DNA of 64,000 nucleotides from an uncultured Candidatus Melainabacteria bacterium. Lineage in GTDB: Bacteria > Cyanobacteriota > Vampirovibrionia > Gastranaerophilales > Gastranaerophilaceae. The DNA is taken from contig CATLDC010000002.1 in the NCBI GenBank assembly GCA_949902595.1, forward strand, positions 62,001 through 126,000. Reading direction: 5' to 3'. Position 1 is the stretch's first letter; each line of letters opens with the position of its first letter. This document shows positions 32,264 through 38,349 of the stretch, piece by piece. A model generated the notes under the pieces. It had not been told where the DNA came from. It made no database searches and saw only the letters and a list, made by a program, of their open reading frames with translations. Position numbers and translations under genes: made by a program.

Positions 32264-35200
32264 TTATAGCGCAAAAAGTCTCACAAGCGAGCCACTTTCA
32301 GCAAGCTGGGATAATTTTTGCTCTTCTGATTCAATATTAACCGCTGAAATCCCCTGTTCTTTAACAATATCAACAAAAAGTTTTTCAAACAGCGCATAAA
32401 TAATCTTTGAGCGGTTGTTATATTTTTGTATCAAAGCAAGCGTGTCATTGATTATCAAAAGCGCGTCCTCGATTTCTGAACCTGAAATCTTTAAAAGCGC
32501 CATAAAGTAGCGTGCAAGCGCCAGAATATTAAATATTGCTGACTTTTCAGACTTCTCAAGAACATCCTTATAAATCGCCTCTGCCTTTTCCGTGATTCCG
32601 ATATTAGAATATGAATACGCAATTAAGAGGTCGCAGAACAGCTCCAGCTGCATTTCATGCAAATCTGATGCAAGAAGTTTTGCTTGATAGATATTCTGCG
32701 CAAAGGTTTTATAATCCTTCGAATGCTCTGAAAACTCCTGCAAAATAAGATAAATAACCTTTGAAAAAGCAGAAGCCTCTTCAATATTAGAAACAGCATA
32801 ACTTTTGCCAGCAAGAAAATCCTTAATCGTAAGTATTGCATCTTTTTCCGGCAGCTCATCCCCGAGAGATGTCCTCACTGCATTAAAGAAGTCGTCCAAA
32901 TCATCATCCATCAGGAAGAGTTTTGCAAACCCTGCAAGCCTGAATATTTCAAACATGTGCTCCACAAAAAGGTTTGTAGAAAAACTTCCAGGCTTGATTT
33001 TTTCCAGAATCTCCGGCTGCAAAATCGCGAGCAGGTCTTTTGCAACATCCACGCACTGCGCAAAATCACCTATGTTGAACAGAATCTCAATATTCACAAG
33101 AGAAAGCAGCAAGAATTTTGTGTTAACCGCACCATCCACAAGCAGGGTTGGATTCTGCATCCGTGTCAGAATATTATGTAAAAGTGTGAGCGCGTCCGTG
33201 TAATTTGAGGATATCAAAGCGCCCTGAAGCATAAGGTTTGAAAGTTTTACAATCTTGTCGTGGTCATCCTCCTGAATCGCATCCATCAAGAGCACATTCT
33301 CGATAGAATAAATCTTCTCTGGAGAATAGCTGTAGAGGCTCATCAGAATGTTTTGGAAGACCTCTTTCTTATTGTTTTCAATATCCTCTGCCGGAATATT
33401 ATCCCCGATGTGTTCAACCAGAGACAAGAATCCGAGGCAGTTTTTCAAATACGCGTCGTAATCTCCGGTCTCCATTGCAAATCGGGAGTTTTTCCAGAGA
33501 AGAAGGTATTCTTCTTTGAAATGCCCAAGTTTTCCCATAATAAGTAGGGTTGAAGTATCATCAAGCCCCTTTCCGAGATTAGCAAGAATGGTTTTGGATA
33601 AAAATTCAACCACCTCTTTTTTCAACGAAGCCTCTATCACAGGTTTTATGAGGTTGTAGTTATTAACATAAATATTTTCGTCTTTTACATGCACAAACCC
33701 CGATTTTTCAAGCAAACCGGCAGTTTTTTCCACCTCTTTAATACCGAGTTTTTTTGCTGTATTAAAATCAATTCTCGCACCTAAAAAAGTGGAATACGCA
33801 AGCACAAGCGAAGCATCCATATTCTTGCTTAAGTGTTTCAAGCGCGCCTTTAAGAGCCCCTGCAAATCAGCCGGAAGAATTACAGAATTGCTGCTCTTAA
33901 TAAGGAGCCTGTTTTCAAAGTTCAAAAGAATGTCTTTTTCTGTCAGGTACTTAATCGCGTTTTCAAAATACAGGCGTGAGCCCTTAAAATTCTCTTTGAT
34001 TTTTTCAAAATAAAACGACTTGATAAAATCAGAGGCTTCTTCTTTGATATTTGAGAGCATTGCTTCCAGCGTTGTTTTCTGGAGCGTATATTCCGAATAC
34101 AGAGGTGTCCTCAAGAGTCCTTTAATCTTGGAATGAAGCGATGTTTCGCTCTCTGTTACAAACACGAAATTTGTATTAACCTTTTTGAATCTGTCAAAAT
34201 AAAGCTCGAGAGTCTGGATAGAAGTGTCGTCCATAAACTCAAAGCCCTCAATCAGCACAACGCAGTTTTTGAGCGAGGCAAAAAAGTCGCCAAAGTCTTC
34301 CATATACGCAAACCGCGCATCTTCCGGCGCAGCCGCTTTTCTTGGTTTAAAAAACAGCAAATCAAAAATCGACTTAAACCTCTTCAAATCAAGAGCCGGA
34401 TTGATGAATGAATTATGAATCGACATTCCGTAATAGTCGCGGAAAATCTGTTCAAACACACCCCACGGCTTGTACGTACACTCTTCCGAGCAAACAGCGT
34501 GCAAGACCTTCATCCCTTTTGATTCATAATAACGGTACAAATCGCCGGTATTGATTTCAAGCTCTCTTGCACCCCTAATCGAGATAATTTTGTTATCATC
34601 CAGGCGGTCTAAGAGTTCAAGTGTGCTAACTTTATTGAATTTGCACTTTGCATTAATATCAAAGACTTTGAAAGCATAAATATCATTACTCTTTTTTGCT
34701 GTCTGTTTCTGAATCTCTTTTGGCTTAACCTCAATCGATTCATCATCCTGTTTTTCAGCCGGAGGAAGCACATAGCTTTCGAGCAGGATTTCATAAAACA
34801 TTACAGTCTTGCCGTCCTGTTCCACCGAATAGAGTGAGTCTGTTTTGTAGTCCTTGTTAATATTGTCGCAAACAAATTCATCCAGAACGATTTGCATGCC
34901 TTTCAGGTATTTCTTTTCCTCTTTTTTTACTGTAAGCATTTTGACATTGTTCTCAATCGAGCTTTCAGAGAGCAAATCCTCCGCCGTTTTTTTCAGAATC
35001 GTAATATTGAGTCTCAAAGAGGTGCCGAGTTCTGCAATAACTTTTGAATTGAGTTCAGAAAACGCGTTCAAAATCTTAATAGCTAGTCTTGCAGCTTTGT
35101 TGGCAGAGGTCGGGAATGAAAGTTCTTTGTTCATATTGACAACAAAAGTGTCGTTATAAATTATGACACGCCCTTCCACGCCTTTTAGTTGGGCTGTGAG

Positions 35201-35554
35201 CAGGTTTTTGAGTCTGAAATAAAATTTTGTGAACAGTTCCTGTGAGCCAAGAAGTCTCCTGATATTTTTGAGTGCGGAAAACTTTATAACAAGTGTTGCA
35301 AACTCATCTGTTTCGCACTCCTGATAAGCGATACTCGTTTTTACAGGGAATCCGCATTTGCATTTTTCTGTGTTTGTAGAGACAGTTTTTCCGCATTTTG
35401 AGCACTTTGTCAAAATCACATATCCGCATCTTTCACAAACCGGAGACATGCTCAATGTACGGCAATTCGGGCACTCAAGCGCCAGAACCTTATGGCAGTG
35501 CGGGCACACTGTTTCATTCTCTCCGATTGTTCTATGACATTTAGGACATTCCAT
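32264..35554 (-). CDS. large zinc-ribbon protein with degenerate cyclase-like and ATPase-like regions, 1096 aa
   Basis: Domain reading: residues 1-75 hold several CxxC zinc ribbons (CPKC, CPHC, CPNC, CERC, CSKC, CKC). Residues about 85-290 match the layout of a class III nucleotidyl cyclase (alternating strands, GRVIIYNDTFVV, NKAARLAIKILNAF, LRLNITILKK) but the metal-binding Asp pair and catalytic Arg/Asn are not evident. Residues about 310-560 look like a STAND/AAA ATPase, yet the P-loop position reads SIRGARELEINTGD without GxxxxGKS/T; CVVLIEGFEFMDD could be the Walker B strand. The remaining 500 residues are helical, probably TPR-like. This is the order of soluble adenylyl cyclase-type proteins in a possibly inactive form. 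ATG at 35554 lies seven bases after TATAAT. It is divergent from the ZorA/ZorB-like pair. Confidence 0.7.
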   Translation of the reverse strand: MECPKCHRTIGENETVCPHCHKVLALECPNCRTLSMSPVCERCGYVILTKCSKCGKTVSTNTEKCKCGFPVKTSIAYQECETDEFATLVIKFSALKNIRRLLGSQELFTKFYFRLKNLLTAQLKGVEGRVIIYNDTFVVNMNKELSFPTSANKAARLAIKILNAFSELNSKVIAELGTSLRLNITILKKTAEDLLSESSIENNVKMLTVKKEEKKYLKGMQIVLDEFVCDNINKDYKTDSLYSVEQDGKTVMFYEILLESYVLPPAEKQDDESIEVKPKEIQKQTAKKSNDIYAFKVFDINAKCKFNKVSTLELLDRLDDNKIISIRGARELEINTGDLYRYYESKGMKVLHAVCSEECTYKPWGVFEQIFRDYYGMSIHNSFINPALDLKRFKSIFDLLFFKPRKAAAPEDARFAYMEDFGDFFASLKNCVVLIEGFEFMDDTSIQTLELYFDRFKKVNTNFVFVTESETSLHSKIKGLLRTPLYSEYTLQKTTLEAMLSNIKEEASDFIKSFYFEKIKENFKGSRLYFENAIKYLTEKDILLNFENRLLIKSSNSVILPADLQGLLKARLKHLSKNMDASLVLAYSTFLGARIDFNTAKKLGIKEVEKTAGLLEKSGFVHVKDENIYVNNYNLIKPVIEASLKKEVVEFLSKTILANLGKGLDDTSTLLIMGKLGHFKEEYLLLWKNSRFAMETGDYDAYLKNCLGFLSLVEHIGDNIPAEDIENNKKEVFQNILMSLYSYSPEKIYSIENVLLMDAIQEDDHDKIVKLSNLMLQGALISSNYTDALTLLHNILTRMQNPTLLVDGAVNTKFLLLSLVNIEILFNIGDFAQCVDVAKDLLAILQPEILEKIKPGSFSTNLFVEHMFEIFRLAGFAKLFLMDDDLDDFFNAVRTSLGDELPEKDAILTIKDFLAGKSYAVSNIEEASAFSKVIYLILQEFSEHSKDYKTFAQNIYQAKLLASDLHEMQLELFCDLLIAYSYSNIGITEKAEAIYKDVLEKSEKSAIFNILALARYFMALLKISGSEIEDALLIINDTLALIQKYNNRSKIIYALFEKLFVDIVKEQGISAVNIESEEQKLSQLAESGSLVRLFAL

Positions 35555-35655
35555 ACTCAAGATTATAGCCTAAATTTAAACATTATGCTATACTTTAAGT
35601 GAATGGAACGGCGCTTATTTGAGCCGTATGGAAATTAAGAAAGTTTGAGGGCGCA

Positions 35656-36540
35656 ATGACACTGCTTAAAATACTTACAGAACCTGCAATCCTGATTATT
35701 ACAGTGTTCTTCCTGTTTTTCATAATGACTGTTGTGAGAAATTATGCAAAGGTGCAAAAGAATCTTAGTTCAGTATCCGGATTTTTGAAAACTCTCAACA
35801 AAAAAGAGCTTTCATACCGATTCCAGCAGCTTGATGAGTTTATGAGTGCAAACAGTTACACATCAACTGCGTGGGAGGATTTCAAAAAAGCGCTTATTTT
35901 TCCGGAAAAGTTGTACATTGCCTCCCAGAACGCAAAAACAGCAGGAGACTTTAAGCCGGAAATCTACCTGACTCTTGACGCTTCTTACTTTTTCAACGAA
36001 GAATCGCTCGTTTATTCAAAGATTAACAACAAGTTCATACAAACAATGCCGACTCTGCTTACAGGTCTGGGGCCGTTTTTCACGTTTTTAAAAATGGCGG
36101 TAGCGTTTACAGAGGTCAATTTCTCAATGGAATCAAATGTCGGAAATTCTCTTAACAGTCTGATTGCAAACATTCAGATTGCAGCGCTTTGTTCAGTGTT
36201 TGCCGTAGGGTTTTCGCTCCTGTTTATGTTCATTGAAAAAATTCTCTACAACAGGATGTGCAAGAAGTATTATCTGGAAATCCAAAAAGAGCTTATCAGG
36301 CTGTTTGATGTTGTGACAAGCGAAAAATTCCTTATCGACCTTGTAAAAGAATCAAAGATGCAGAACGTCACAAACGAAAAACTTTTAAAAGCCCTGCCTG
36401 ATAACTTTGCAAAAGCAGTCGCAAAGAGTCTTGGAGAGACAACAACTCCATATTTGGAAAACATTCTCTACAGCCTTAACAAATTGAACGAATCAATGAG
36501 CAAAAACAAGGGCGGGGATGTTGTAGACAAATTATTTTAA
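35656..36540 (+). CDS. MotA/TolQ/ExbB-type proton channel protein, ZorA-like
   Basis: A 294-aa membrane protein with three likely transmembrane helices: about 8-27 (AILIITVFFLFFIMTVV), about 132-150 (TLLTGLGPFFTFLKMAV) and about 172-195 (IQIAALCSVFAVGFSLLFMFI). The layout, with a cytoplasmic loop of about 100 residues between TM1 and TM2, and the PTLLTGLGPFFTFLK segment match the MotA/ExbB superfamily, closest in layout to ZorA of Zorya defence. It lacks the long cytoplasmic tail of classical ZorA. The OmpA/MotB-like gene follows after 16 bp. A GAGGGCGC ribosome site precedes the ATG. Confidence 0.7.
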   Translation: MTLLKILTEPAILIITVFFLFFIMTVVRNYAKVQKNLSSVSGFLKTLNKKELSYRFQQLDEFMSANSYTSTAWEDFKKALIFPEKLYIASQNAKTAGDFKPEIYLTLDASYFFNEESLVYSKINNKFIQTMPTLLTGLGPFFTFLKMAVAFTEVNFSMESNVGNSLNSLIANIQIAALCSVFAVGFSLLFMFIEKILYNRMCKKYYLEIQKELIRLFDVVTSEKFLIDLVKESKMQNVTNEKLLKALPDNFAKAVAKSLGETTTPYLENILYSLNKLNESMSKNKGGDVVDKLF

Positions 36541-36556
36541 CTGATTCGGAGCGTAG

Positions 36557-37213
36557 ATGAGAATAAGACCGCACAAAGAAGATAACAGCGAAAACAACAT
36601 TTTCTGGGTAACAATGACTGACCTTATGACAGCATTGGTACTGGTATTCATTGTCCTGTTTTTCTACACCTACATGACAAGCTACTACGAAAAAATCCAG
36701 GGCGAGCTTGAGCAGAAAAAAGCGTCCGAAGCCTTAGAGACAACACTCAAGCAGCAGAACATAGAAGCAAGTGTTGACGATGTTACAGGAGTTGTAAAGA
36801 TTTCTGATTTGGAATTGTTTGACATAAACAGTTACGAGCTTTCTGAGAAGGGCAAAAAGTATCTGGACAAGTTTGCACCGGCGTATTTGAACTCGCTTTT
36901 CACAAACGAGTACCTCAATGAGAACATCGAAAAAATAATTATTCAGGGACACACTGACTCACAAACTTTCAAGGGCAAGTTTTCAGAAGACGAGCAGTAC
37001 ATGAAAAACATGGATTTAAGTCTAAAACGAGCTTACTCCGTTGCAAACTACATGACAAACACCCCTTATAACAAGGCTAACGGAAACAGACTCCGTAAAA
37101 TGATTATTGTAGAAGGCGCAAGTTTTTCAAATCCGGTTCTGGTAAACGGTAAAGAAGATTTTAACAAAAGCAGACGCGTCGAGTTAAAAGTCGTTATGAA
37201 AACAAAAGACTAG
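36557..37213 (+). CDS. OmpA/MotB-domain protein, ZorB-like
   Basis: A 218-aa stator partner. One transmembrane helix (about 23-43) is preceded by FWVTMTDLMTALV, where Asp22 matches the proton-carrying Asp of MotB (ADLMT). A short coiled coil follows (about 48-68), then an OmpA-like peptidoglycan-binding domain with IIIQGHTDS (about 133-141) and the C-terminal NKSRRVELKV. Together with the upstream ZorA-like protein it should form an ion-driven, peptidoglycan-anchored motor. The GGAG site precedes the ATG. No zorC, zorD or zorE follows. Confidence 0.75.
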   Translation: MRIRPHKEDNSENNIFWVTMTDLMTALVLVFIVLFFYTYMTSYYEKIQGELEQKKASEALETTLKQQNIEASVDDVTGVVKISDLELFDINSYELSEKGKKYLDKFAPAYLNSLFTNEYLNENIEKIIIQGHTDSQTFKGKFSEDEQYMKNMDLSLKRAYSVANYMTNTPYNKANGNRLRKMIIVEGASFSNPVLVNGKEDFNKSRRVELKVVMKTKD

Positions 37214-37472: not shown

Positions 37473-37569
37473 GGCTTAAGCCTCTGATTATACATTGCAT
37501 TATCATTATAAACTATTTTTGAACTTTTTCCAGTATGTTTATGCTAAAATCATTCTGTTGAGGTACTTC

Positions 37570-38349
37570 ATGAAAAAATTTTCAGCTTTATTTTTTGTAT
37601 TACTAATGTTAATCTCCAAAGCTTTTGCAGACGACCTGAGATTTGTTCAGGTAACAGATGTTCGACACAAAGCTGATTGCGAAAATAACACCCTCGCAAA
37701 AACCATTCAAGACATTAACAAACAAAAAAACGTAGAATTTGTTGTATTCACCGGAGATAACATTAATCATCCGACAAAAAGTGATTTGGAATCATTTATC
37801 ACAGAAGCAAAAAAGCTCAATTGTCCGTTCTATGTCGTAATCGGAGACCACGATGTTAACAAACACAAAGAACTCGGAAAAGCTCAATACATCAAAACAA
37901 TAAGAAAACAAGTACGCAAATACGACCCTGAAACACCAAGCTACTCTTTTGAGAAAAAAGGTGTAAGATTTATTGTTGCAGACGGAGCAAAAGAAGTTAT
38001 TCCAAGCTCGACAGGATATTACAAAGACGATGTTCTCACCTGGCTTGACACAGAACTCTCGCTCTATCCTGATAAAAATGTAATCATTTTACAGCATTTT
38101 CCGATTATACCGCCATCAAAGCGTGAATCATATTATACTTTCAAACCCGAAAACTACATGAAAGTTCTTGCAAAACACAAGAATGTCAAAGCCGTTATTA
38201 CAGGTCATTTCGGGGTAAACAACGAGCAAGAAGTTAACGGAATCCTGCATATATCAACAGCTCCGGCACCGTCTTACAGAATCATAGACATAATGGATTA
38301 CGAAACATCAAACCCTACAATCTGGGCGCAACTCAAAGATGTAAAATAA
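37570..38349 (+). CDS. exported calcineurin-like metallophosphoesterase
   Basis: A 259-aa protein with a signal peptide (KKFSALFFVLLMLISKAFA, cleavage near residue 20). The metal-site blocks of the calcineurin fold are present in a slightly altered form: VTDVRH (DxH), FTGDNIN (GD), IGDHDV (normally GNHD; here Asp replaces Asn), LQHFP and TGHFG (GHxH-like; second His replaced by Gly-Val). It may be a periplasmic phosphodiesterase, but altered blocks III and V make activity uncertain. GAGG before the ATG at 37570 sets the start. Confidence 0.75.
   Translation: MKKFSALFFVLLMLISKAFADDLRFVQVTDVRHKADCENNTLAKTIQDINKQKNVEFVVFTGDNINHPTKSDLESFITEAKKLNCPFYVVIGDHDVNKHKELGKAQYIKTIRKQVRKYDPETPSYSFEKKGVRFIVADGAKEVIPSSTGYYKDDVLTWLDTELSLYPDKNVIILQHFPIIPPSKRESYYTFKPENYMKVLAKHKNVKAVITGHFGVNNEQEVNGILHISTAPAPSYRIIDIMDYETSNPTIWAQLKDVK

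What the first reader, a model, noticed from the sequence alone, without database searches (positions are those of the whole stretch)
32264..37213. Zinc-ribbon/cyclase-like/ATPase-like giant facing a ZorA-ZorB-like motor pair without zorC/D/E
Seen: a 1096-aa protein with CxxC ribbons, a cyclase-shaped region and an ATPase-shaped region lacking a P-loop, divergent (about 100 bp) from a MotA-like gene and a MotB/OmpA-like gene with the proton-carrying Asp22. Known: Zorya anti-phage systems use a ZorAB motor with ZorC/D or ZorE. Inference: this may be a motor-based sensing or envelope system in which the giant replaces the usual effectors, or a housekeeping energiser unrelated to defence.
Basis: partly seen in the sequence, partly recalled or inferred. 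Interest (0 to 1): 0.75.

Follow-up and report, generated by a model that had tools for sequence, protein, structure and literature searches.

The report
Zorya-like motor with cytoplasmic partner protein
An ion-driven membrane motor of the kind bacteria use against phages is kept in these gut bacteria as a core chromosomal gene pair, without the usual anti-phage parts, and is nearly always inherited and lost together with one large cytoplasmic protein whose enzyme folds look dead; this suggests a defence motor put to everyday (probably cell-envelope) use.

Summary
The window (Gastranaerophilales, Melainabacteria) holds a short ZorA (294 aa), a ZorB (218 aa, Asp22, OmpA domain) and, divergent across 101 bp, a 1096-aa protein: zinc ribbons, a class III cyclase fold, a STAND/MalT-like ATPase fold without P-loop, and a TPR superhelix. 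The pair belongs to the Zorya ZorAB branch, not to MotAB or TolQR/ExbBD, but lacks the long ZorA tail that Zorya needs and all of zorC/D/E. Among 146 genomes of the order, 104 carry both pair and giant, 41 neither, 1 only the pair. A marker tree implies about three independent joint losses. The divergent layout recurs in three families, so it is old. Only the ZorAB-linked giants lost the P-loop; paralogues and relatives in ZorAB-less genomes keep it. Genuine Zorya I and II loci exist elsewhere in the order, as contrast. Best reading: a vertically inherited, repurposed ZorAB motor coupled to a non-catalytic scaffold that takes the place of tail and effectors, probably an envelope device rather than phage defence. 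Physical contact and function are inferred. New variant of a known kind.

The parts
32264..35554 (-). giant, 1096 aa: zinc ribbons (aa 1-70), degenerate class III cyclase fold (74-262), P-loop-less STAND/MalT-like module with winged helix (about 305-660), TPR superhelix (about 666-1096)
35555..35655 (.). 101-bp divergent intergenic region, presumably holding both promoters (one weak sigma-70-like match nearby, no better than chance)
35656..36540 (+). short ZorA-type motor subunit, 294 aa: three TM helices and a 60-70-residue helical tail ending in D-x-V-D-x-L-F
36557..37213 (+). ZorB-type motor subunit, 218 aa: TM helix with Asp22, periplasmic OmpA/peptidoglycan-binding domain

Best explanation
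A ZorA5B2-type rotary ion motor that has become a fixed, vertically inherited part of the Gastranaerophilales cell and works with the giant as its cytoplasmic partner. Shown: the pair is of the ZorAB branch, keeps the ion-carrying Asp and the peptidoglycan-binding residues, and has no long tail; the giant's STAND module has lost the P-loop and its cyclase module probably the metal site; pair and giant are present and absent together. Inferred: ZorB clamps to peptidoglycan; ion flow turns or switches the ZorA ring; the short ZorA tail with its conserved C-terminal D-x-V-D-x-L-F peptide docks on the giant's TPR superhelix or ribbons; the giant acts as a non-catalytic scaffold that passes the motor's state (wall or envelope condition) on to further cytoplasmic partners, in place of the Zorya tail and nuclease effectors. 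The most likely role is an envelope sensing or energising task, not phage defence.
For: Pair is ZorAB: PADLOC ZorB1 4e-51, ZorA1 4e-27; ZorA model matches only ZorA well (8qyd E 8e-8; TolQ, ExbB, MotA at 0.05 or worse); ZorB tree puts it in one clade among Zorya I and II. Co-occurrence: 104 both, 41 neither, 1 pair only, 0 giant only, of 146 genomes; the exception, G069, also lacks the GlgA that flanks the giant in its sister genome. UvrB tree: 3 changes of state, read as about three joint losses if presence is ancestral; in most genera that keep them the two loci are unlinked. A prediction held: two divergent proteins of genus g41 fell inside the giant clade and both genomes proved to have ZorB. 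Divergent adjacency in families f1, f4 and f5. P-loop: 0 of 46 ZorAB-linked giants, yet GxxxxGK in 22 of 22 paralogues checked and a P-loop in the homologues of ZorAB-less genera. Core distribution and housekeeping neighbours (MnmE, GlgA, DUF711, UvrC, DapL, RuvB).
Against: No physical interaction is shown; a ZorA-giant complex could not be predicted here. Giant and pair are on different contigs or far apart in most genera, where the giant sits with glgA and the pair with a DUF711 gene. Branch-length co-evolution is high (giant-ZorA r 0.96) but the giant's paralogue also correlates highly, so that test does not discriminate. The DxVDxLF end is weaker in families f4 and f5. About three joint losses is a small number of independent events, and it rests on one marker tree. 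No direct envelope evidence beyond the ZorB domain.
Confidence: 0.55

Rival explanations
1. It is still a defence system: a core, tail-less Zorya variant in which the giant, a STAND-like TPR protein as in Avs or NLR-type immunity, is sensor or effector.
For: Nearest relatives found in the plasmid collection are Zorya ZorB proteins (33% identity); STAND plus TPR is a known immune architecture and an Avs4 structure is among the weak fold hits.
Against: Near-universal and single-copy in most genera with vertical inheritance; no nuclease, no P-loop, no long ZorA tail, which is required for defence in types I and II (PMC11890865); neighbours are housekeeping genes; a true Zorya I sits beside genes that read as restriction genes in the same order (L095).
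Confidence: 0.2
2. The pair and the giant are functionally independent; they are two old core genes that happened to be neighbours and were lost in the same lineages.
For: In most genera the giant is beside glgA and the pair beside a DUF711 gene; only about three independent joint losses; the mirror-tree control is also high.
Against: No giant-only genome and only one pair-only genome in 146; in most genera the two loci are unlinked, so one deletion would not remove both; the P-loop was lost exactly in the ZorAB-linked clade; the g41 prediction held.
Confidence: 0.2
3. The giant is primarily a regulator of glycogen synthesis (GlgA partner) and the motor feeds envelope or energy status into it.
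For: giant-glgA adjacency in most genera and in loci that also keep ZorAB adjacent (L064, L154, L161).
Against: Glycogen-synthase-type genes are present also in genera without giant and pair, and in the window's genome the gene lies elsewhere (G000 contig C1).
Confidence: 0.05

Closest known systems
Zorya type I/II ZorAB motor (E. coli 8qyd, Shewanella 8vvn, Sulfuricurvum 8vvi)
   Same: three-TM ZorA (as in type I), ZorB with ion-carrying Asp and peptidoglycan-binding OmpA domain; best family, structure and tree matches
   Different: tail of 60-70 residues instead of about 460 (type I) or 270 (type II); no ZorC/D/E in the locus; core and vertical rather than patchy
STAND ATPases of the MalT type
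   Same: AAA-like module, winged helix and TPR superhelix in the same order; the paralogue scores to AAA_16 and weakly to TPR_MalT
   Different: P-loop lost; zinc ribbons and cyclase fold in front; no LuxR-type DNA-binding end detected
Class III cyclase + NTPase + TPR proteins (soluble adenylyl cyclase-like; architecture recalled from general knowledge)
   Same: order cyclase fold, ATPase fold, TPR
   Different: no Pfam cyclase match; metal-site residues apparently not kept; single, apparently dead cyclase module
Flagellar MotAB and TolQR/ExbBD
   Same: same motor superfamily
   Different: separate genes of these types exist in the same genomes; sequence and fold matches far weaker than to ZorAB

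Membership tests
Zorya defence system | ZorA and ZorB homologues, adjacent and co-directional | tested here: met
   PADLOC and NCBIfam matches (NCBIfam scores are below the Zor cut-offs), tree (68), fold (92)
Zorya defence system | long structured cytoplasmic tail of ZorA | tested here: not met
   tail 60-70 residues against residues 237-696 in Shewanella type I and 110-378 in type II (PMC11890865)
Zorya defence system | ZorC+ZorD, ZorE or ZorF+ZorG in the locus | tested here: not met
   no such PADLOC match for the giant or the genes after zorB in the window; in related loci no gene family other than those named recurs beside the pair, though not every neighbour was scanned
Zorya defence system | ZorB Asp and peptidoglycan-binding residues | tested here: met
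   D22, GHTDS, SRRVEL invariant in 19 sequences
Zorya defence system | anti-phage activity | not testable with these tools
   needs an experiment
Flagellar MotAB | MotA_ExbB/MotA similarity and flagellar neighbours | tested here: not met
   no PF01618 match for the window ZorA; MotA fold match E 0.27; separate MotAB pairs lie next to genes that read as fliL/fliM/fliN elsewhere
TolQR/ExbBD | TolQ/ExbB-type A subunit and short B subunit | tested here: not met
   TolQ/ExbB fold matches at E 0.05 or worse against 8e-8 for ZorA; B subunit has an OmpA domain
STAND ATPase | AAA/NOD plus winged helix plus repeat sensor fold | tested here: met
   8bob Z 14.6, 361 residues, 5.7 A; 6mfv E 1.8e-10
STAND ATPase | P-loop (Walker A) | tested here: not met
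   absent in all 46 ZorAB-linked giants
Class III nucleotidyl cyclase | cyclase fold | tested here: met
   3r5g Z 16.3, 2.9 A over 167 residues
Class III nucleotidyl cyclase | two metal-binding Asp | tested here: inconclusive
   columns 91 and 135 never both Asp in 32 sequences, but the assignment of these columns was made by eye on the beta-strands

The most novel reading that the evidence does not exclude
A phage-defence rotary motor (ZorAB) was domesticated early in Gastranaerophilales into a core envelope machine, and its cytoplasmic output was re-made by replacing tail and nucleases with a pseudo-cyclase/pseudo-STAND scaffold: a new class of ion-motor-to-cytosol signalling.
Probability: 0.4. 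Interest if true: 0.8.

Novelty: new variant of a known kind. Interest (0 to 1): 0.62.

Why it matters
ZorAB motors are, to my knowledge, described only as phage-defence devices. A core, tail-less ZorAB with a fixed new partner would show that the motor module can be uncoupled from defence, and gives a natural comparison for the open question of what the ZorA tail and motor rotation pass on to the cytoplasm. It also warns that profile-based defence finders may call these core genes Zorya.

Tried and rejected
Flagellar stator or TolQR/ExbBD: rejected by family, fold and tree results. A link to genome-wide presence of GlgA: rejected, such genes are present with and without the system. Mirror-tree as proof of contact: the first run looked decisive, a second with mis-picked controls was discarded, and the corrected one showed that the paralogue correlates almost as well (in the reduced set better), so I do not use it. 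The 235-aa genes facing giant-like proteins in genera without ZorAB read as pdxJ, not hidden ZorB. A query meant to be the whole paralogue was mistyped as 33 aa; its hits were used only to locate the paralogues. Literature: no paper held both Melainabacteria and Zorya; two held Gastranaerophil- and 'zora' once each, were not opened, and by title concern other matters. One further literature query was malformed.

Full report
What is there. On the minus strand, 32264-35554 encodes a 1096-aa protein; across a 101-bp gap, 35656-36540 and 36557-37213 on the plus strand encode a 294-aa and a 218-aa membrane protein. Pfam finds zinc ribbons in the giant and a MotB plug and OmpA domain in the 218-aa protein, and nothing useful in the 294-aa protein. 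PADLOC identifies the latter two as ZorB (4e-51) and ZorA (4e-27), and finds no ZorC, ZorD or ZorE. NCBIfam agrees, below its cut-offs for named Zorya proteins.

The motor. Phmmer and profile searches of the PDB return E. coli, Shewanella and Sulfuricurvum ZorAB first. The AlphaFold model of ZorA (mean pLDDT 70.6, poor beyond residue 220) has helices at about 10-46, 125-153 and 159-216, read as the TM helices, and a last helix to 283; its Foldseek matches are ZorA at E 8e-8 to 1e-5, with TolQ, ExbB and MotA at 0.05 or worse. In 19 relatives the ZorB Asp22 and the GHTDS and SRRVEL peptidoglycan-binding motifs are invariant, and ZorA ends in D-x-V-D-x-L-F in most members, less clearly in families f4 and f5. 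The ZorA tail is 60-70 residues, against 237-696 in type I and 110-378 in type II, where it is required for defence (PMC11890865). A ZorB tree places the 17 core sequences in one clade (90/98) among Zorya I and II sequences, away from flagellar MotB.

The giant. The model (pLDDT 82.8) shows ribbons, a class III cyclase fold at 74-262 (CyaB Z 16.3), a MalT/STAND-like module at 311-734 (Z 14.6) and a TPR superhelix. The ribbon cysteines are invariant. No ZorAB-linked giant has a P-loop; the Walker B-like acidic residue E436 and D442 are kept. The 990-aa paralogue has GxxxxGK in all 22 genomes checked and matches AAA_16 and, weakly, TPR_MalT; homologues in genera without ZorAB also have a P-loop. 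The tree puts the P-loop-less giants together in one group, which also takes in two fast-evolving, ribbon-less proteins of genus g41.

Who has it. In 146 genomes of the order, 104 have a giant at E 1e-40 or better and 105 a ZorB at that level; the sets differ by one genome, G069. These counts were made by hand from the tables. G069 also lacks the neighbouring GlgA of its sister genome, so a gap or a deletion of that block is likely. The g41 proteins predicted ZorAB in G306 and G311, and both have ZorB at about 1e-81. On a UvrB tree presence needs three changes: with presence ancestral in the main family, this reads as joint losses in g16, in g20 plus g25, and in g17/g18/g22/g24. The placement of g41 on that tree is weakly supported. 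The giant's profile in 292 genomes of the phylum finds it only in this order, apart from one weak partial match.

Gene order. The divergent giant | ZorA-ZorB layout is found in nearly all loci close to the window's own, in g19, in L154, L161 and L183, and in families f4 and f5. L064, L154 and L161 show glgA-giant | zorA-zorB-DUF711-c4; elsewhere this block is mostly split into a giant-glgA part and a zorAB-DUF711 part beside uvrC. These are housekeeping surroundings. By contrast G011 carries, besides the core pair, a complete Zorya I (ZorA 542, ZorB, ZorC, ZorD) next to genes that read as restriction-modification, and family f3 carries ZorA-ZorB-ZorE. Every one of 41 genomes checked also has one to four PF01618 motor genes, so the core pair is not the only motor.

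What it most likely does. Shown: homology, retained ion and wall-binding residues, absence of the long tail, lost P-loop, joint inheritance. Inferred: that the giant binds the motor's cytoplasmic side, that it is a non-catalytic scaffold, and that the device reads or energises the envelope. The distribution and surroundings argue against phage defence. I rate functional coupling of pair and giant as likely, and the envelope role as the best but unproven guess.

Limits. No complex could be modelled. Mirror-tree correlation is high but not specific. Independent losses are few and rest on one marker. The metal-site columns of the cyclase were assigned by eye. Not every neighbouring gene was scanned against defence models.

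Noticed in passing
L356:2910-9278 (own genome G000 contig C11); also L202, L199, L210: The giant's P-loop-bearing paralogue follows a gene that in L202 has sigma-70 region 4 and a larger gene that in L202 ends in a TonB C-terminal-like domain; a second conserved zinc-ribbon/STAND cluster (in the own genome the two upstream genes have no Pfam match).
   Followed up: partly
L095:2663-9869 (G011): Complete type I Zorya (ZorA, B, C, D) beside genes that read as HsdM/HsdS and a WYL-like regulator, in a genome that also has the core pair.
   Followed up: yes
L093, L094, L096 (family f3): ZorA (400 aa)-ZorB-ZorE type II Zorya; the ZorE of L094 matches PADLOC ZorE2 models.
   Followed up: yes
L204:6169-9282, L205 (genus g41): Giant that has lost its zinc ribbons on a very long branch, with ZorAB kept elsewhere in the genome.
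   Followed up: partly
L275 (G002) and L278 (G176): Further motor pairs with longer A subunits (506 and 639 aa) and unfamiliar neighbours.
   Followed up: no
window 37495-38349 (+): Calcineurin-like phosphoesterase with a signal-like start, downstream of the pair; a different gene follows ZorB in most related loci.
   Followed up: no
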